Assembly (NCBI GenBank): GCA_947629785.1 | Contig: CANRFB010000024.1 | Coordinates: 1-34,464, forward strand | DNA from: an uncultured Clostridia bacterium | GTDB lineage: Bacteria > Bacillota > Clostridia > Oscillospirales > Ruminococcaceae | Direction of reading: 5' to 3' | DNA length: 34,464 bases | In this document: positions 26,581-34,321 of the stretch, piece by piece | Position numbering within the stretch: the stretch's first letter is position 1 | Layout: each line of letters begins with the position of its first letter | Made by a program: the position numbers and the translations under genes | Notes under the pieces: generated by a model | What the model was told of the DNA's origin: nothing | What the model saw: the letters and a program-made list of their open reading frames with translations, nothing else | Databases searched by the model: none

Positions 26581-29343
26581 TTGGATATATCCGCATTGTT
26601 GAATAAAAAGATCGGGTCGGATCATAGCCGTAAAATAAAAACTGTCCGAAAACCCATAAACTTGGGTAGAAAGGTATACATTTTAGCTTTCTTTGTGCCT
26701 GTGCTGATACTTATTGCTGCATATGCTCTCTGGGGTATATATCCGGTAAAAGATAAATCGGTCCTTACCTATGACCTTAACGATCAGTATGCGAATTTTT
26801 ATGAACATTTCAGGGACGTGTTCCACGGGAACGGAAGTCCGTTCATAAGCTGGAGCAGAAATCTTTCAGGCGAGATGATGGGCATATTCGCATACTATCT
26901 TTCAAGTCCCTTTATGCTGATACCTATGCTGCTGCCAAGAACCATGATGCAGGAATCTGTTCTTATAATGCAGCTTTTAAAGACAGGTACGATCTCTGTG
27001 TCATTCTGCTTTTATATGAAAAATTCCAAAAAGGTAACGGAGACAACGGCGCTTATCTTTTCAATTTCATACAGCCTGATGTCCTATGTAATAATAGAAC
27101 TCATCAATCTCATGTGGCTGGACGGACTTATCTGGCTGCCTGTCATCTGTTTCGGCATAGAACGGCTTATTGACAAGGAAAAATGCTTTTTATTCGCATT
27201 TTCCCTTGCAATGATGATCATATCAAATTTCTATATCGGCTGGATGATAGTTATTTTCAGCTGTCTGTATTTTCTTGCGTATTTCTTTGCACTTTCGGAA
27301 AGGGCTGCGGGGCTGAAGCGTTTTCTTAAACAAGGCGGAAAGTTTGCGCTTTCGGGAATACTTGCCGCCGCGTGTTCCGCATGGCTGCTGATACCGCTTT
27401 ATTACAGCCTCAGCCTTGGAAAATTTGGTTACTCTGAACCGGATCGGAACTCAATTATAAATCTTAATATTTTAAGTTTCCTCGCAAATCTTTTCCCTAA
27501 TACCTATGATTCCGTTGATTACGGCGGTTCTCCGCTGATGTACTGCGGACTTCCGGCAATAATATTAGTTCCGCTTTACTTTATGAACAAGGATATAACT
27601 TTAAAGAAAAAGCTCGGATATGGGATACTTCTTGCGGTTCTGACCGTTTCAATGTGTATATATCCGCTTGATCTTGTATGGCATGGATTTCAGGAACCTA
27701 ACGGAAGCCGATGCAGGTATTCTTTTATACTTTCGTTTTTACTTCTTGTTATGGCGGCGCAGATGTTTGAAAAGCTGCAATATGTAAGTATTCCGAAGTT
27801 TTTGTGTATTACGGCTGTTTTATCGGTATACATAGTGCTTATGTATTTTAATTTCCGCACGGTCGTTATACAAAACGGCGATGTTATGGAAAAGATCCGT
27901 TTAAAGGCAACGGTTTATTTTACGGTGATATTTTTTGTATTGTACGGGGCGGCTTTATTTATCCACAAAAAAGGTGAAAAAGTAAAGCATATTCGTTCAA
28001 AGACAGCTTTGCTTTTGTGTATTGAAATGATAATTACAGTTCCATGCAGCATATACGAGTTATATGATGATGTAAAATATCCGACACATCATATATATAA
28101 TGAGTTTATTACACTCGGAAGAAATACCGTTCAGAGAGTCGGTGAATTTGACAACGGCGTTTATCGCATGGAAAAGGATTTTTTCAGTACCGCAAACGAT
28201 CCTATGTCCTTGGGATTTTACGGAATAACACATTCGAGTTCTACGTTTAATGGCGGAGTATATAATTTTTTTGTGAATATGGGATTTTCAAGACAAAGGA
28301 GCGGCATAATTTACAGAGGCACAACATATATCATGGATTCGCTGCTTGGAATAAAATATGTAATGGAACAGGGAAGCGCGTATACCGGTCCTGTTGAAGA
28401 TATTTATGGAAATGTTACTATTATTGAAAAGCCGAAAGCTGCCGAGTCAAAGATGTATGACAAATTAGTCCTTGCAAACAGTGATGAAAAGAATATAATT
28501 TACGTTTACGAAAACCCATATGCCCTGCCCATAGGGTTCATGGCGGATAATGCCGCTGCCGATGTTGAACTTGACAGCTGGGAAAATCCATTTGAAAACC
28601 AGAATATTCTGTTTTCCTCGCTGCTTTCGGACGAAAAGCAGGACTTCTTCAAAAGGATAGAAATAAATGAAGTAACTGCTGAAAATGCGGAATATTCAGA
28701 GTTTGACGGGCATAAAAGGTATACCGCAATTTCGGAAGATGAAACCGCATCGGTGGAATTTAAATTCACCGCGCCGTCGGATGATATGATATATATGTTT
28801 ATGCCCTCCGATCACCCCGAGCATATAACGCTTTTCCTGAACGGTAAGTTTATTAATCATTATTATATAAGAAGAGAGAATATGATGATACAGAGTTTAG
28901 GCAGATTTTCCGAGGGCGAAGAAGTAACGTTAACGGCTAATATTGCCGGTGAAAATAACGAAATGCTTTTCAAGGAAAATTACATATATTACCTTGATGA
29001 AGAAAAATTCAGCGAAGCCGTTGAGAAACTGAAAAGTCAGCCCTTGGAAATAACTTCATTCAAGGAAGATCACATTATCGGGAACGTTACCGTCGAAAAG
29101 GATGGCATACTGTTCACTTCCATATCCTATGAACCCGGCTGGACATTCTGCGTTGACGGTGTAAAAACAGAGCCTGTCAGAATCGCTAACGCACTGGCAG
29201 GAATTCCCATGAGGGGGGGTACTCACACTGTCGAAATGAAGTTCTTCCCGCGGGGACTTGCTGCGGGAATTGCCGTTTCAGCGGTTGGTATCGTCATTCT
29301 GGCAATAATAGGGATTTACGAGAGAAAGAAGCGTTCATCATAA
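26581..29343 (+). CDS. YfhO-family membrane protein, copy 1
   Basis: 920 residues starting at TTG with GGAGGGG five to six bases upstream. About 12-13 membrane helices fill residues 30-500, a large extracytoplasmic domain follows to about 890, and a last helix precedes the ERKKRSS tail. The first outer loop has the conserved TYDLNDQYANFYEHF segment (about 60-74), whose Asp resembles the catalytic Asp of GT-C glycosyltransferases. The C-terminal domain has GWTFCVDGVKTEPV. B. subtilis YfhO-type proteins are linked to glycosylation of lipoteichoic acid with lipid-linked sugars, so a surface-polymer sugar transferase is likely. The middle part (27.6-28.5 kb) uses more A/T-ending codons than copy 2 at 30.4-33.1 kb, so the two copies have evolved apart for some time. 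Confidence 0.92.
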   Translation: MDISALLNKKIGSDHSRKIKTVRKPINLGRKVYILAFFVPVLILIAAYALWGIYPVKDKSVLTYDLNDQYANFYEHFRDVFHGNGSPFISWSRNLSGEMMGIFAYYLSSPFMLIPMLLPRTMMQESVLIMQLLKTGTISVSFCFYMKNSKKVTETTALIFSISYSLMSYVIIELINLMWLDGLIWLPVICFGIERLIDKEKCFLFAFSLAMMIISNFYIGWMIVIFSCLYFLAYFFALSERAAGLKRFLKQGGKFALSGILAAACSAWLLIPLYYSLSLGKFGYSEPDRNSIINLNILSFLANLFPNTYDSVDYGGSPLMYCGLPAIILVPLYFMNKDITLKKKLGYGILLAVLTVSMCIYPLDLVWHGFQEPNGSRCRYSFILSFLLLVMAAQMFEKLQYVSIPKFLCITAVLSVYIVLMYFNFRTVVIQNGDVMEKIRLKATVYFTVIFFVLYGAALFIHKKGEKVKHIRSKTALLLCIEMIITVPCSIYELYDDVKYPTHHIYNEFITLGRNTVQRVGEFDNGVYRMEKDFFSTANDPMSLGFYGITHSSSTFNGGVYNFFVNMGFSRQRSGIIYRGTTYIMDSLLGIKYVMEQGSAYTGPVEDIYGNVTIIEKPKAAESKMYDKLVLANSDEKNIIYVYENPYALPIGFMADNAAADVELDSWENPFENQNILFSSLLSDEKQDFFKRIEINEVTAENAEYSEFDGHKRYTAISEDETASVEFKFTAPSDDMIYMFMPSDHPEHITLFLNGKFINHYYIRRENMMIQSLGRFSEGEEVTLTANIAGENNEMLFKENYIYYLDEEKFSEAVEKLKSQPLEITSFKEDHIIGNVTVEKDGILFTSISYEPGWTFCVDGVKTEPVRIANALAGIPMRGGTHTVEMKFFPRGLAAGIAVSAVGIVILAIIGIYERKKRSS

Positions 29344-29349
29344 AAAGCA

Positions 29350-29380
29350 ACGGGGCAGTTCATACTGTCCCGTGATTTTT
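29350..29380 (+). terminator. Terminator of yfhO copy 1
   Basis: ACGGGGCAGT pairs with ACTGTCCCGT (one G-U) over loop TCAT, followed by GATTTTTT. The stop codon of the opposite-strand kinase gene (29360-29362) lies in the loop, so the two genes share these bases. Confidence 0.87.
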
Positions 29381-29887
29381 TAATTCCTCTGCCCAAGCCG
29401 GCAGGCGGTCGGTCTTAAAAATGAGTTTGCCGTTTTTATATTCGCCTATCTCAGAAAAACCGTTTTCGTTGTCGAAAAGGTGAACTTCGCTGCAATAGGG
29501 AAGCACCGCGTTCAGGTCATCGAAGCGTTTATTGTATCTTCGCATCACATCTTCCGGCAGAATGTTATGACCGCCCTTTTCAACGCGGTTTCGTATGCGC
29601 TTTATGCTTTCCTCGGCGGTATCGACGCCTATATAGTAAAGCCTGATGTAATATCCGTGGTCTATCGCCTTTTTTATTGTATTTAAAGTGCAGACTCCGG
29701 ACAGTGTAGTTTCCTGAGTAAAATTCACGCCCATATCAATGCTTTTGTTTATGTGTTCAAATGCAGCGTTTTCGTCTGTTTCGGTATCAACAATAATTCC
29801 CAAATCGTTGCTTTCGGCAGACAGGACGCCTGTCAGGCTGCTTTTTCCCACGCCGTTGACTCCGCCTATGATAGTATATATTTTCAT
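29360..29887 (-). CDS. Zeta-toxin-like P-loop kinase
   Basis: 175 residues. Walker A GGVNGVGKSS is at 8-17. The central FTQETTLSG segment and the later YYIGVDTAEESIKRIRNRVEKGGHNILPEDVMRRY segment (split here: YYIGVDTAEESI, then RIRNRVEKGGHN) are typical of zeta/PezT-related P-loop kinases. Genuine zeta toxins phosphorylate UDP-activated amino sugars and block wall synthesis; shorter relatives like this one may have other substrates. An ACGGAG site precedes the ATG. It lies 22 bases after a Phd-type antitoxin-like gene on the same strand and shares that promoter, making a toxin-antitoxin-like pair. A separate function as a sugar or nucleotide kinase remains possible. Confidence 0.85.
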   Translation of the reverse strand: MKIYTIIGGVNGVGKSSLTGVLSAESNDLGIIVDTETDENAAFEHINKSIDMGVNFTQETTLSGVCTLNTIKKAIDHGYYIRLYYIGVDTAEESIKRIRNRVEKGGHNILPEDVMRRYNKRFDDLNAVLPYCSEVHLFDNENGFSEIGEYKNGKLIFKTDRLPAWAEELKNHGTV

Positions 29888-29909
29888 TTTTATTACTCCG
29901 TATTTATAA

Positions 29910-30149
29910 TTATAACAAATATAACATATCCATGCGTTCCAGTTCTTCTTCGGACGGTATTTTGAATTGTCCTTTGCCTGCGCCTAAAAAGCTTGTTTTA
30001 TTTTTAACAGGTTTATCCTTAAAAGGTATGATCTTTGCAACAGGCTCGTCGTTACGTTCTAAAATGATCTCGTTATTAGCATTATTTTCCAAAGATTTTA
30101 TAAGTGCTAAAAGGTCATGCTCTGCTTCACAAATGTTAATTTGTACCAC
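29910..30149 (-). CDS. Phd/YefM-type antitoxin-like protein
   Basis: 79 residues starting at GTG with GGAGG eight bases upstream. The N-terminal half matches the prevent-host-death fold: INICEAEHDLLALIKSLE, then EIILERNDEPVAKIIPF, the DNA-binding dimer part. The C-terminal tail (SFLGAGKGQFKIPSEEELE) resembles the toxin-binding end of Phd proteins that normally pair with PIN-domain or Doc toxins. No PIN, RelE or Doc gene is present; the next gene is a zeta-like kinase. Such antitoxins usually repress their own promoter, here the perfect site at 30178-30206. Confidence 0.88.
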   Translation of the reverse strand: MVQINICEAEHDLLALIKSLENNANNEIILERNDEPVAKIIPFKDKPVKNKTSFLGAGKGQFKIPSEEELERMDMLYLL

Positions 30150-30177
30150 AAATCACACCTCCGAACTGATTAACCAT

Positions 30178-30206
30178 ATTATATACAATTCTTTTGAGTT
30201 TGTCAA
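30178..30206 (-). promoter_or_regulatory. Consensus sigma-A promoter of the phd-zeta-like operon
   Basis: TTGACA (30201-30206) and TATAAT (30178-30183) on the minus strand with a 17-base spacer, the only full consensus promoter in the window. The start GTG is about 29 bases beyond the -10. Such a strong promoter fits an autorepressed antitoxin operon. Confidence 0.9.
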
Positions 30207-30259
30207 CCCCGCATTAACTCCGGATCTTATAATTTTTGCTGAAAATTACATGAAAACTC

Positions 30260-30288
30260 TTGTAAAAAGTAAAAAAAGGAATTATAAT
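30260..30288 (+). promoter_or_regulatory. Promoter of the second yfhO gene
   Basis: TTGTAA (30260-30265) and TATAAT (30283-30288), 17-base spacer, divergent from the antitoxin promoter about 55 bases away. Confidence 0.72.
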
Positions 30289-30354
30289 AGTATATGTAGG
30301 TTTTTATATTAGCAGGAAATATTTTCCTTGAATAACTTGAACGGAGGTCTGTAA

Positions 30355-33111
30355 TTGAAGATAACAGGTCAGAAAATAAAGTCATTTGTATTTGATAAGC
30401 GGCTTTACCTTTTTGCATTTTTTGTGCCGATGGCGGTGCTTTTCATATCATATCTGTTTTTCGGGCTCTATCCCGTGAAAGACCAGTCTGTACTGGTGCT
30501 TGACCTGAACGGACAGTATGTGTATTATTTTGAAAATCTGCGGGACGCGTTCTGGGGGAACGGCAGTCTTGTAAACAGCTGGAGCAGGAACCTTTCAGGC
30601 GAGATAATAGGTATGTTCGCATACTATCTGGCAAGTCCTTTCACGCTGGTGGTAATGCTTCTGCCACGCTCCATGATGACAGAATCCCTGCTTATAATGC
30701 AGCTGCTGAAAGTCGGGTCGGCTTCGGTGACGTTCTGCTACTATCTTCGCCATTCAAGAAGGACTTCTCCCTACACGTCGCTGATATTTTCCATACTTTA
30801 CAGCCTTATGGCATACATGATAGTTCAGCTTATGAATCCCATGTGGCTGGACGGACTTGTTTATCTTCCCATAATATGTCTCGGTATAGAGCATCTCATT
30901 GACGACGGTGAATGGCTGTTATTCATTATTCCCCTTGCGCTGATGTTTATGGCGAATTTCTATATCGGCTGGATGATAGCAATATTCTGCATAATTTACT
31001 TCCTTGTGTATCTGTTCCTGCTTTCGGATAAAGCATACCCGTTCAGAATATCGCATATTTTCATGTCGGGGGTGAAATTTGCCTGCGGCGGAGTTCTGGC
31101 GGCGGTATGTTCGGCATGGCTGCTGATACCCCTTTATTACAGCCTAAGTCTGGGAAAATTCGAGTTCACCGACCCGAATTACGATATGAAAACCCAGTTC
31201 GACTTCATAGACTTCTTTGTAAATCTTCTGCCCAACGTTTACGACACCTGCCGCCCTGAGGGTTCGCCCGTGGTTTACTGCGGCGTTCTTACGATAATGC
31301 TCGTTCCGCTGTTCTTCTTCAACAGCAGGATAAAACTCCGCAAGAAGATAGGCTGGGGCATTCTTGCGCTGATAATGATACTTTGTATGTATATGTACAC
31401 GGTGGACATAGCATGGCACGGTTTCCAAGTTCCCAACTGGCTTCCCTACAGGTATTCCTTTATTTTCAGCTTTATTCTGCTGATAATGGCGGCGCAGGCG
31501 TTCGACAAGATAAAGGGAATTTCTTACAGAGAGATCGGCTTGATGTTCTTCCTGCTGATAGGATATGTTTTCTATATAGACAAGCAGGATATTACGGTAA
31601 CCGCCAACGGCAAGGATATTGAAAAAGTTCATCTCCTTGCCACCGTCTGGTTTACCGTTGCAGCCGCGGGAATTTACGCGCTGCTGCTGTATTTCCACAA
31701 AAGATACTACAAGGTAAAACCTATCCCGCTGATGGTAGTCGGATTTATCATCGCGGAACTGACATTTACCTCAACATTCAATATGTATGAAATAGACAGG
31801 GACGTGGTTTACTCGAAACACAGTTCCTATAACCGATATATCACCCTCGGACGGAACACCGTTGAGAAAATTTACGACATGGACGACGGCGTTTACAGAA
31901 TTGAAAAGGATTTCCAGAGAACGGTAAACGACGCCATGGCATTCGGCTCCTTCGGACTGGGACATTCAAGCTCCACTCTCAACGCCGCGCCCATACAGTT
32001 CCTGAGAAAACTCGGCTTCTCCTACGGCGGACATTACATCAGATACAAAGGCGCGACCTACGTTACGGATTCCATATTCGGAATAAAGTACGTTATGGAA
32101 AAGGGAAACACGGCGCAGACCACCACGGACGAATTCGGCGTTGAAACTACCGAACCCGCCGAAGTGGCGGCTTCAAAGCATTACGACAAAATGGTCCTTG
32201 CCAACGGCGACAGCAAGGAAATAATGTACGTTTACGAAAATCCCTATGCCCTGCCCATAGCGTTCATGGCGGATAATTCAATTGCCAACGTGCAGTTTGG
32301 CAGCTGGGACAACCCCTTTGAAAATCAGAATATTCTGCTTTCCGCACTTGTTTCAGATGAAAAGCAGGACTTCTTCAAGCCGATAGACATAAAAGATGTC
32401 GTTCCCGAAAACGCCAAGCCCTCTGTTTACGGAAATCATGACAAGTATGTTCCCAGAATAGAGGGGGAGAATTCACATATCGAATTCCTGTTTGACGCGC
32501 CCACCGATGATATGATATATATGTTCTTCCCGTCAAACTATGAAAGGAAAGTAAATCTCTGGCTCAACAAAGATTTCCTTGACTACTATTACGAGGGCGG
32601 GAACATGAATATCCAGACTCTCGGAAAATTCACCCCCGGCGAGGAAATTTCCCTTATAATGACAATTACCGAGAAAAACGAAGTGCTTTTCAAGGAAAAG
32701 TATTTCTACTACCTTGATGAAGAACTGTTCAGCAGCGCAGTTGACGAACTAAGGAAACAGCCGCTGGAAATAGAGTCGTTCAAGGAGGACCACATAAAAG
32801 GAACTGTTACTGCACAGAAAGACGGCATACTTTTTACAACCATAGCATGGGAACCCGGCTGGAAGATCTACGTTGACGGCAAACGCACCGAACCGGTAGA
32901 ACTTATGGACGCGCTTGTAGGTGTTCCCGTATCGGCAGGAACTCACACCATTGAATTTAAGTTCTTCCCCAAGGGCATGACAATCGGAATTATACTTTCA
33001 GTCATGGGAGTTATGACCTTAGCGGTAATATGGCTCTACGAACGCAGGGAACGCAATTCCAAATCGGTTCCTGACGCCGCAGAAAACGGTATTCCTGCCG
33101 ATACACTTTAA
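30355..33111 (+). CDS. YfhO-family membrane protein, copy 2
   Basis: 918 residues, TTG start with GGAGG seven bases upstream. It shares the layout of the copy at 26.6-29.3 kb throughout: helices from about 15 to 480, the conserved first-loop DLNGQYVYYFENLRD segment (about 49-63), MNPMWLDGLVYLPI, NFYIGWMIAIFC, PLYYSLSLGKFEFTD, then an extracytoplasmic domain with VYENPYALPIAFMADN and GWKIYVDGKRTEPVE, a final helix and a charged tail that is about 15 residues longer than in copy 1. The two are clear paralogues, probably a tandem duplication. Predicted GT-C-type sugar transfer to a surface polymer, by family. Sequence divergence suggests different acceptor or donor use. Confidence 0.93.
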   Translation: MKITGQKIKSFVFDKRLYLFAFFVPMAVLFISYLFFGLYPVKDQSVLVLDLNGQYVYYFENLRDAFWGNGSLVNSWSRNLSGEIIGMFAYYLASPFTLVVMLLPRSMMTESLLIMQLLKVGSASVTFCYYLRHSRRTSPYTSLIFSILYSLMAYMIVQLMNPMWLDGLVYLPIICLGIEHLIDDGEWLLFIIPLALMFMANFYIGWMIAIFCIIYFLVYLFLLSDKAYPFRISHIFMSGVKFACGGVLAAVCSAWLLIPLYYSLSLGKFEFTDPNYDMKTQFDFIDFFVNLLPNVYDTCRPEGSPVVYCGVLTIMLVPLFFFNSRIKLRKKIGWGILALIMILCMYMYTVDIAWHGFQVPNWLPYRYSFIFSFILLIMAAQAFDKIKGISYREIGLMFFLLIGYVFYIDKQDITVTANGKDIEKVHLLATVWFTVAAAGIYALLLYFHKRYYKVKPIPLMVVGFIIAELTFTSTFNMYEIDRDVVYSKHSSYNRYITLGRNTVEKIYDMDDGVYRIEKDFQRTVNDAMAFGSFGLGHSSSTLNAAPIQFLRKLGFSYGGHYIRYKGATYVTDSIFGIKYVMEKGNTAQTTTDEFGVETTEPAEVAASKHYDKMVLANGDSKEIMYVYENPYALPIAFMADNSIANVQFGSWDNPFENQNILLSALVSDEKQDFFKPIDIKDVVPENAKPSVYGNHDKYVPRIEGENSHIEFLFDAPTDDMIYMFFPSNYERKVNLWLNKDFLDYYYEGGNMNIQTLGKFTPGEEISLIMTITEKNEVLFKEKYFYYLDEELFSSAVDELRKQPLEIESFKEDHIKGTVTAQKDGILFTTIAWEPGWKIYVDGKRTEPVELMDALVGVPVSAGTHTIEFKFFPKGMTIGIILSVMGVMTLAVIWLYERRERNSKSVPDAAENGIPADTL

Positions 33112-33243: not shown

Positions 33244-34212
33244 CTATTTTTCTACATAAACATAAGGAGAAATTTTTTCAAGTTTCTTTTCTCCTATGCC
33301 CTTTACATTCAGCAGCTCGGAAACATCGCTGAATCCTACTGTTTGGGCATATTCCAGAATTGCGTCAGCGGTTACGCCGCCTATTCCGTTTATTTGCATA
33401 AGTTCTTCTTTTGTTGCGGAATTAAGTTCAATTACCGGAGTATTTTCAGCTGCTGAAACAGTTTCGGAAACTTCCGGAATTGTGACCGTTTCTTCAGATT
33501 CGGGAGAAATACAAATAAATTCCCGCATTTTATCTAAAGTTTTTTCACCTATTCCGTCAACATTGAGAAGTTCGTCAACTGAATGGAAATACCCGTTATT
33601 TTCACGGTAGGAAATTATTTTTTCTGCCGTGGAAATTCCGATACCGCTTATATTTGTAAGTTCTTCCGCAGCAGCAATATTTATATCTATCGGAAAATTT
33701 ACTATTGAAACGGTTACGGAAGTTTCTTCGGGGATAGTGGTCGATGTGATTGCTTCTTCAAATTCAGGAGAAATACAAATAAATTCCCGCATTTTATCTA
33801 AAGTTTTTTCGCCTATTCCGTCAATATTGAGAAGTTCGTCAACTGAATGAAAATATCCGTTATTTTCACGATAGGAAATTATTTTTTCTGCAGTGGAAAT
33901 TCCGATACCGCTTATATTTGTAAGTTCTTCCGCAGCAGCAATATTTATATCTATCGGGAAATTTACCTGTGCGGCAGTTTCGGTGTCAGACTTATTTTGC
34001 GAATATGAATAAGTTTCATCGCCGTTTTCCCATAAATCGCTGTCGTCATATTTTGTTGCATCGGTATAACTGATCCCCTCAAGTTGTTCACCTGAAAGAG
34101 TAACTACTGTAGGGATAATTTTTTCTGAAAATTTATCTGAAATTCCATAAAAAGCCATTGATAAAATTGAAATTAATATACAAATGCAAGCCGCAGTATA
34201 CGCCTTTTTCAT
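33244..34212 (-). CDS. Membrane-anchored protein with three ComEA-type helix-hairpin-helix domains
   Basis: 322 residues from ATG 34212 (the frame is open to 34254, but MKK-plus-hydrophobic is the natural N-terminus). One membrane anchor lies at about 4-24, then a Ser/Asp-rich linker. Three ComEA-like HhH units follow at about 85-145, 172-233 and 260-320, each with INIAAAEEL or LNSATKEEL, a GIG hairpin and a second GIGEKxLxK hairpin. Units 1 and 2 are nearly identical; unit 3 is divergent. ComEA binds incoming DNA outside the membrane during transformation and normally has one such unit plus an SLBB domain, absent here. So DNA binding is likely, a competence role less sure. A weak GAAGG ribosome site lies inside the end of a small upstream ORF. 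Confidence 0.9.
   Translation of the reverse strand: MKKAYTAACICILISILSMAFYGISDKFSEKIIPTVVTLSGEQLEGISYTDATKYDDSDLWENGDETYSYSQNKSDTETAAQVNFPIDINIAAAEELTNISGIGISTAEKIISYRENNGYFHSVDELLNIDGIGEKTLDKMREFICISPEFEEAITSTTIPEETSVTVSIVNFPIDINIAAAEELTNISGIGISTAEKIISYRENNGYFHSVDELLNVDGIGEKTLDKMREFICISPESEETVTIPEVSETVSAAENTPVIELNSATKEELMQINGIGGVTADAILEYAQTVGFSDVSELLNVKGIGEKKLEKISPYVYVEK
33503..33966 (-). repeat. Tandem 200-base coding repeats, 264-base period
   Basis: 33503-33702 and 33767-33966 are aligned with an offset of 264 bases and differ at about seven positions by eye, mostly third codon positions. They encode the first two helix-hairpin-helix units of the ComEA-like protein. The 64-base spacer, a Ser/Thr/Glu-rich linker, is less conserved. 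Confidence 0.9.
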
Positions 34213-34216
34213 AATA

Positions 34217-34321
34217 TCAGCCTTCAATTTGACAAACACAAAATATTGGAACATCGGGGTCGAGAGGTTCTTCCGAAATCACCGCATCGTCCATAAGAGC
34301 AATGATGTCAGATGTTTCCAT
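34217..34321 (-). CDS. Possible 34-residue leader ORF before the ComEA-like gene
   Basis: An ORF from ATG 34321 to TGA at 34217-34219 encodes a 34-residue acidic peptide beginning METSDIIALMDD and ending CVCQIEG with two cysteines. GAGGG lies one base before the ATG, which is a very short spacing. Its stop is 4 bases before the ATG of the ComEA-like gene, a spacing typical of translational coupling. It lies downstream of the promoter at 34345-34373, so it is transcribed. I do not recognise a family. An in-frame upstream extension would overlap the promoter and is unlikely. Confidence 0.5.
   Translation of the reverse strand: METSDIIALMDDAVISEEPLDPDVPIFCVCQIEG

What the first reader, a model, noticed from the sequence alone, without database searches (positions are those of the whole stretch)
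29360..30206. Phd-type antitoxin paired with a zeta-like kinase, set between two yfhO paralogues
The sequence shows a consensus promoter, a 79-residue Phd/YefM-like protein and, 22 bases on, a 175-residue P-loop protein with zeta-like motifs. By established knowledge zeta/PezT toxins pair with epsilon or PezA antitoxins, and Phd proteins pair with Doc, PIN or RelE-type toxins. This combination would be a hybrid module. Because zeta kinases act on cell-wall sugar nucleotides and YfhO acts on surface polymers, a link with the flanking genes is conceivable but only inference.
Basis: partly seen in the sequence, partly recalled or inferred. Interest (0 to 1): 0.72.

Follow-up and report, generated by a model that had tools for sequence, protein, structure and literature searches.

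The report
Zeta-like kinase with a Phd neighbour
Two small bacterial genes that look like a new kind of toxin-antitoxin pair are really there, but the pair was found in only two sister species, and the kinase, which has lost part of its active site here, belongs to a family that mostly has no recognisable partner.

Summary
The hybrid-module reading is weak. The pair was seen only in the window and one same-genus assembly (L031), at one site between tandem yfhO genes. Of 121 near kinases, window included, 2 have a Phd, 8 an HTH, 8 an RHH-like partner and 94 no recognised one. Outside this clade 23 of 40 sit directly behind another small protein; inside it none of 121 do. The solo pairs tested are under strong purifying selection, and two relatives keep an intact kinase where the HTH gene is gone behind the same promoter. 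Between window and L031 the kinase is constrained; the Phd is not distinguishable from neutral. The window kinase lacks the loop holding the aspartate that aligns with the catalytic base of PezT, so it is probably inactive or altered. The Phd resembles PIN-paired Phds. YfhO lies near 2 of 121 kinases, so no link. The kinase clade is interesting; the pair itself is not an established module.

The parts
30178..30206 (-). promoter TTGACA-17-TATAAT
   Evidence: 12 of 12 consensus match; same hexamers in L031
30157..30162 (-). ribosome-binding site GGAGGT of the Phd-like gene
   Evidence: read directly from the sequence
29910..30149 (-). Phd/YefM-like protein, 79 aa, GTG start (ATG in L031)
   Evidence: 29-34% identical to Phd-type proteins that lie before PIN-type genes
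29888..29909 (-). 22-nt spacer with GGAG before the kinase
   Evidence: same length in L031. HTH and RHH-like partners of relatives overlap or abut the kinase start instead (-4 to +2)
29360..29887 (-). zeta-like P-loop kinase, 175 aa
   Evidence: Pfam Zeta_toxin 27.1 bits; the family profile matches PezT 2p5t and zeta 1gvn in the PDB
29837..29866 (-). Walker A motif GGVNGVGKSS (kinase residues 8-17)
   Evidence: K15 in 120 of 121 near kinases
29762..29788 (-). site of the missing active-site loop (kinase residues 34-42); net 33 nt shorter than in L031
29705..29716 (-). conserved QETT motif (kinase residues 58-61)
   Evidence: its glutamate is kept in 161 of 161
29567..29599 (-). conserved RIRNRVEKGGH motif (kinase residues 97-107)
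29350..29373 (.). terminator-like hairpin shared by the end of yfhO 1 and the end of the kinase
   Evidence: 10 pairs; the T run lies on the + strand side
26581..29343 (+). yfhO paralogue 1 (flank, not part of the unit)
   Evidence: Pfam YfhO E=2.5e-189
30355..33111 (+). yfhO paralogue 2 (flank, not part of the unit)
   Evidence: Pfam YfhO E=6.5e-182; the two yfhO genes lie about 20-25 nt apart in G331 and G793 (read)

Best explanation
The unit is a once-formed neighbourhood of two accessory genes, not an established toxin-antitoxin family. Shown: a promoter, a Phd-type gene and a zeta-like kinase gene lie between tandem yfhO genes in the window and in one same-genus assembly, and two other same-genus genomes lack them there. 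The kinase belongs to a clade, mostly from Oscillospiraceae and related Clostridia by record title, in which none of 121 members has the small partner seen upstream of its outer relatives; members stand alone or behind unrelated small proteins (HTH_26, RHH-like, here Phd). The kinase is under clear constraint; the Phd is not distinguishable from neutral between the two species. In the window the kinase has lost the loop with the presumed catalytic aspartate. Inferred: the clade phosphorylates a small molecule (by homology a nucleotide sugar) as a partner-independent accessory enzyme, perhaps in lysogeny or phage defence, since 23 of 121 lie near an integrase-like gene; the Phd, probably from a Phd-PIN lineage, at most represses the promoter and does not neutralise; the window kinase is inactive or altered.
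For: Partner census: near clade of 121 (window included) has 0 of the outer small partner, 8 HTH, 8 RHH-like, 2 Phd, 94 none, 8 with an abutting ORF of no class, 1 contig edge; of 40 outer kinases 23 have the small partner. Tree of 112 kinases: HTH label needs at least 5 changes, RHH at least 6, Phd 1, outer partner 1. dN/dS 0 to 0.19 in the 28 of 32 hand-picked kinase pairs with finite dS, among them 17 solo-solo pairs. HTH gene gone behind the same promoter with the kinase intact in L086 and L005; only weak HTH hits elsewhere in those genomes. Phd 11 nonsynonymous against 4 synonymous changes (p=0.51 against neutrality); kinase about 17 against 35 (p=3e-12). Loop loss; the lost aspartate aligns with PezT D66 and zeta D67 (numbers counted by me); PezT D66T is inactive and nontoxic (PMC3062530, passages). 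Two intact Phd relatives lie before PIN-type genes. YfhO-like near 2 of 121, integrase-like near 23 of 121.
Against: The window kinase retains the other conserved residues checked, its shortening stays in frame, and E36 or D38 could stand in for the lost aspartate. L111 and L125 keep the loop but have N or A at that position, so the aspartate is not strictly kept even in apparently intact copies. A loop-less form is retained in the L016/L057 lineage, so loss of the loop need not mean loss of function. The Phd is an intact ORF with a perfect promoter in both species; its comparison rests on one species pair and 15 changes, and its dS (0.09) is far below that of the yfhO genes (0.66-0.71), so the locus may have recombined. 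'No partner' cannot exclude an antitoxin elsewhere or an unknown RNA (Rfam found none at the window locus). The HTH and RHH labels are hardly more clustered on the tree than shuffled labels (52 and 80 of 500 shuffles as low), and partner profiles were seeded with sequences from the same loci. Window and most relatives are draft or metagenome assemblies, so an assembly error at the loop is possible. No structure could be predicted. Substrate and toxicity are untested.
Confidence: 0.6

Rival explanations
1. A true hybrid type II toxin-antitoxin module: the Phd C-terminal tail binds and blocks the zeta-like kinase, and the Phd-kinase complex represses the promoter.
For: Antitoxin-first order, short spacer, own promoter and presence of both genes in two species. 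Type II partners are known to swap (PMC10440598, passages), and HTH_3-Zeta and ParD_like-Zeta combinations are already in TASmania (PMC6504116, passages).
Against: One locus, 2 of 121 near kinases. Phd not detectably constrained. Close kinases do without a recognised partner. The Phd resembles PIN-paired Phds. The window kinase lacks the presumed catalytic aspartate.
Confidence: 0.17
2. The kinases are genuine toxins that are held in check by an antitoxin encoded elsewhere in the genome or by an unrecognised RNA, so that loss of the adjacent partner is harmless.
For: Family resemblance to PezT and zeta. Truncated, frameshifted and internally deleted copies are found (L083-L085, L087-L089), as expected if an active copy can be costly.
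Against: Only weak HTH hits (E 1.3e-4 to 9e-4) elsewhere in the four genomes G260, G795, G797, G798, against 7.8e-49 for the intact gene in the fifth, G796. Among the 25 largest neighbour clusters listed the only small same-strand ones right before the kinase were the HTH and RHH-like partners; the others were antisense ORFs, integrase, repressor-like or locus-specific genes, and a 130-150 aa protein at 7 of 102 loci. No Rfam family at the window locus.
Confidence: 0.15
3. An ordinary housekeeping small-molecule kinase that is misnamed by the Zeta_toxin profile.
For: Strong purifying selection without a partner in the pairs tested.
Against: Patchy distribution (81 of 396 family genomes; 47 of 394 in the order), varied settings, integrase-like neighbours (23 of 121) and plasmid relatives in 555 records point to an accessory gene.
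Confidence: 0.08

Closest known systems
epsilon-zeta and PezAT toxin-antitoxin systems
   Same: Zeta_toxin family match; profile similarity to PezT and zeta over Walker A, the aspartate and the stretch after it
   Different: About 186 aa against chains of 253 and 287 aa; no epsilon or PezA partner; near clade mostly alone; window copy lacks the aspartate aligned with D66/D67
Zeta-like kinases of plasmids and other Clostridia with a small abutting partner of about 54-64 aa (unnamed here)
   Same: Same kinase family, 24-40% identical in the plasmid rows seen; the partner gene abuts or overlaps the kinase
   Different: The near clade lacks this partner: 0 of 121
Phd-PIN modules
   Same: The Phd-like protein is 29-34% identical to two Phd-type proteins that lie before PIN-type genes
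   Different: There the downstream gene is PIN-type at -4; here it is a kinase at +22
TASmania HTH_3-Zeta_toxin and ParD_like-Zeta_toxin combinations (PMC6504116, passages)
   Same: Zeta-like toxins with DNA-binding-type partners other than epsilon
   Different: Phd is not among the zeta partners in the passages seen

Membership tests
epsilon-zeta / PezAT | Walker A P-loop | tested here: met
   GGVNGVGKSS; K15 in 120 of 121 near kinases
epsilon-zeta / PezAT | catalytic aspartate (zeta D67, PezT D66) | tested here: not met
   Window copy lacks it; L031 has it, as do 116 of 121 near kinases. Alignment to PezT and zeta; residue numbers counted by me from it
epsilon-zeta / PezAT | epsilon or PezA-type antitoxin upstream | tested here: not met
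   The only Pfam match of the upstream protein at E up to 1 is Phd/YefM
epsilon-zeta / PezAT | phosphorylation of UDP-GlcNAc | not testable with these tools
   needs an enzyme assay
Phd/YefM antitoxin family | N-terminal Phd/YefM domain | tested here: inconclusive
   E=0.003, 17.7 bits against a cut-off of 29.8; similar to two PIN-paired Phd-type proteins
Type II toxin-antitoxin module | adjacency of the two genes kept in unrelated genomes | tested here: not met
   2 of 121 near kinases, one locus in one genus
Type II toxin-antitoxin module | toxicity of one gene and neutralisation by the other | not testable with these tools
   needs expression tests
Phd-PIN module | PIN-domain toxin downstream | tested here: not met
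   The downstream gene is the kinase; PIN-type genes follow only the relatives L091 and L092 (Pfam for L091)

The most novel reading that the evidence does not exclude
A clade of zeta-type kinases has become independent of antitoxins: a one-gene accessory enzyme, in about a fifth of cases near an integrase gene, whose reading frame is exchanged between genomic settings at its start codon and repeatedly docks behind unrelated small DNA-binding-type proteins (HTH_26, RHH-like, Phd). The same catalytic loop has been lost at least three times, and one loop-less lineage has been kept by selection, so a shortened, possibly non-catalytic form may have a use of its own.
Probability: 0.35. Interest if true: 0.68.

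Novelty: new variant of a known kind. Interest (0 to 1): 0.42.

Why it matters
Zeta toxins are taken to be harmful unless bound by an antitoxin (recalled). A clade that lives without a recognised one, under strong purifying selection where tested, and that keeps an intact kinase where the neighbouring HTH gene is gone, is a natural experiment on whether zeta-like kinases must be toxic and on how a toxin becomes an ordinary accessory enzyme. It also warns that an antitoxin-like gene beside a toxin-like gene is weak evidence for a module.

Tried and rejected
YfhO link: rejected, YfhO-like genes near 2 of 121 kinases. Phage origin: the IMG/VR scan gave 1 pattern stretch and none confirmed; phage records gave 4 matches, the best 53% identical in an unannotated faecal scaffold. 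Phd on plasmids: no match. RNA antitoxin: no Rfam family at E up to 1 in 29200-30500. Operator palindrome near the promoter: only weak inverted repeats. Epsilon likeness of the outer small partner: no PDB or NCBIfam support. Kinase in PADLOC: only weak hits, E 0.0059 and up.

The kinase reading frame as a precise mobile unit was considered because in 8 of 32 hand-picked pairs homology between kinases in unlike settings starts within 2 nt of the start codon; in the other pairs it starts further out or runs on into the flanks. Recombination between existing copies, whose only shared sequence is the ORF, explains it as well, so it is kept only in the novel case. Flanking direct repeats exceed permuted pairs (13 of 107 at score 11 or more, 1.5 expected), but several are hairpins or dispersed repeats.

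Parts given to calls: A2 holds 72 of 119 full-length kinases; A1 holds 46 of 49 candidate upstream ORFs. For the tree 7 of 119 kinases were left out: L095, L096, L098, L099, L101, L104, L138. Structure prediction was asked for and never ran, so no fold search was made.

Full report
What is there. The finding lies on the minus strand. Going down in coordinates: promoter TTGACA-17-TATAAT at 30206-30178 (12 of 12), GGAGGT, a 79-residue ORF (29910-30149), 22 nt, and a 175-residue ORF (29360-29887) that ends in a terminator-like hairpin shared with the end of the first yfhO gene. The first ORF has a sub-threshold Pfam Phd/YefM match (E=0.003); the second passes the Zeta_toxin cut-off with a partial match (27.1 bits). 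The flanks are two full-length yfhO genes on the other strand. In two same-genus genomes, G331 and G793, the tandem yfhO genes are about 20-25 nt apart (read), so the promoter-Phd-kinase unit looks like an insertion.

How widely the pair occurs. Counting the window's own genome, the kinase was found in 81 of 396 genomes of the family, 47 of 394 of the order and 26 of 391 of the class (profile search), and at 59 loci in genome contigs. The Phd protein itself matched 3 of 396 family genomes and its profile 8 of 386, several of these short or at the threshold. Beside a kinase it was seen only in the window and in L031. L031 appears to be the contig of G791, a same-genus genome: both are 63,064 bases long. 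The two intact Phd relatives, L091 and L092, are followed at -4 by a PIN-type gene (Pfam PIN for the L091 one); L243 is a fragment and L245 a Phd-like ORF without a visible toxin downstream.

What the other kinases have upstream. From 178 distinct loci, 161 kinases had an ORF of 160-260 aa. The 121 near ones (45% or more identical to L031 over at least 140 residues; window and L031 included) divide into 94 without a recognised partner, 8 HTH, 8 RHH-like, 2 Phd, 8 with an abutting ORF that fits no class, and 1 at a contig edge. The classes come from small profiles that I seeded with 6 HTH, 7 RHH-like, 4 Phd and 15 outer-partner sequences, mostly from these same loci. Pfam supports HTH_26 for 6 and Arc for 2 members of A1; the other RHH-like labels rest on similarity, and L068's had no Pfam match. 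'None' includes L021, which has an MqsA-like ORF 17 nt upstream, and L042 (in the no-class group), L086, L005 and L037 carry what look like remnants of the HTH gene. The HTH genes end at -4 (7) or -1 (1), the RHH-like at -4 (7) or +2 (1), the two Phd genes at +22. Of the 40 outer kinases 23 have a small ORF, about 54-64 aa, within -4 to +4; none of the 121 near ones does. I call it three-helix-like by eye only. It had no NCBIfam or PDB support. In 9 of 11 plasmid stretches a small annotated ORF likewise abuts or overlaps the kinase match.

Partner turnover. On a tree of 112 kinases (7 of 119 left out) the HTH label needs at least 5 changes, RHH-like at least 6, Phd and the outer partner one each. 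Against over-reading: shuffled HTH and RHH labels gave as few changes in 52 and 80 of 500 cases, and the tool warns of long branches. L036 keeps the HTH gene; L086 and L005 share its promoter region and ribosome-binding site, but most or all of the HTH gene is missing, and the kinases are intact, with dN/dS of 0.034 and 0.057 to L036. L086 keeps the 3' end of the HTH gene, so loss is shown there; for L005 it is inferred. In the genomes of L005, L086, L042 and L037 only weak HTH hits (E 1.3e-4 to 9e-4) were found, against 7.8e-49 for L036's own gene.

Selection. Of 32 hand-picked kinase pairs, 28 had finite dS, with dN/dS between 0 and 0.19; 17 of these are solo-solo. Between window and L031 the kinase has about 17 nonsynonymous and 35 synonymous changes (p=3e-12 against neutrality), the Phd 11 and 4 (p=0.51) (counts); the two ratios differ (Fisher p=0.007). 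Against a clean reading: dS is 0.09 in the Phd, 0.38 in the kinase and 0.66-0.71 in the yfhO genes, so parts of the locus may have recombined, and 15 changes are few.

The window kinase is damaged or altered. Against L031 (186 aa) it lacks 25 and 8 nt, net 33, in frame. The lost segment begins with the aspartate kept in 116 of 121 near and 37 of 40 outer kinases. In the profile alignments to PezT (2p5t) and zeta (1gvn) this aspartate aligns with PezT D66 and zeta D67 (numbers counted by me from the printed alignment). PezT D66T shows no kinase activity and no toxicity (PMC3062530, passages seen). The same loop is missing in L016 and L057, which share the upstream gene, and in L138: I infer at least three losses. 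L111 and L125 keep the loop but have N or A in place of the aspartate. L016 and L057 differ by dN 0.198 with saturated dS, so a loop-less form seems to have been kept in that lineage; this argues that the shortened protein is not necessarily useless. E36 or D38 of the window protein might replace the lost residue.

Setting. Integrase-like genes lie within the held stretch of 23 of 121 near kinases; six of these, L128-L133, are near-identical copies. In L064 the kinase sits between an S24-type repressor and a phage integrase. YfhO-like genes lie near 2 of 121; 106 of 121 have at least 1 kb held on each side. So the YfhO link is not supported, and a prophage or integrative-element cargo role is suggested for part of the clade (inference).

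Comparison with print. TASmania lists HTH_3-Zeta_toxin among Firmicutes pairs and calls ParD_like-Zeta_toxin a possible new family (PMC6504116, passages). Makarova and colleagues name Doc, PIN, RelE and a MazF-like family as Phd partners and note many solo toxins (PMC2701414, passages). Partner swapping is well known (PMC10440598, passages). A marine survey lists further Phd pairings; the term zeta does not occur in its main text (PMC12654330, passages). I found no Phd-zeta pair in these passages or in the listings (one search returned no paper); that is a statement about this library and these searches only.

Verdict. The module reading rests on one locus in one genus, with a Phd that shows no detectable constraint and a shortened kinase in the window itself. 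The better story is the kinase clade: zeta-like, without the partner its outer relatives have, under strong selection where tested, and behind changing neighbours.

Noticed in passing
L140-L144, L147-L159, L171, L093, L094, L097, L102: A protein of about 54-64 residues directly before zeta-like kinases in Clostridia and on plasmids (23 of 40 outer kinases), without NCBIfam or PDB match: a possible unnamed antitoxin family.
   Followed up: partly
L083, L084, L085, L087, L088, L089: Frameshifted, truncated or internally deleted copies of the kinase, most keeping the 5' end.
   Followed up: partly
L061/L058, L068/L110, L044/L045, L123/L127: Kinase ORFs 88-95% identical at DNA level in unlike settings, with homology starting within 2 nt of the start codon and ending near or before the stop.
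   Followed up: partly
L035, L052, L112: The sequence before the kinase start, including the ribosome-binding site, is repeated after the kinase stop; in L035 over 36 nt exactly.
   Followed up: partly
L005, L006, L019, L035, L052, L054, L086: A protein of about 130-150 aa beginning like MNIIKYP recurs near the kinase at 7 of 102 loci, on either side; no Pfam match for the L035 copy.
   Followed up: partly
window 29910-30206 against L031: The promoter-Phd stretch is much more alike between the two species (Phd dS 0.09) than the kinase (0.38) or the yfhO genes (0.66-0.71); not explained.
   Followed up: no
L114, L115 (both G025), L110, L074, L116: A hairpin-like stretch of about 42 nt lies directly before the kinase start in several integrase-linked copies.
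   Followed up: no
window 33244-34254: A 336-residue protein with tandem, nearly identical helix-hairpin-helix-like repeats (ComEA-like by eye).
   Followed up: no
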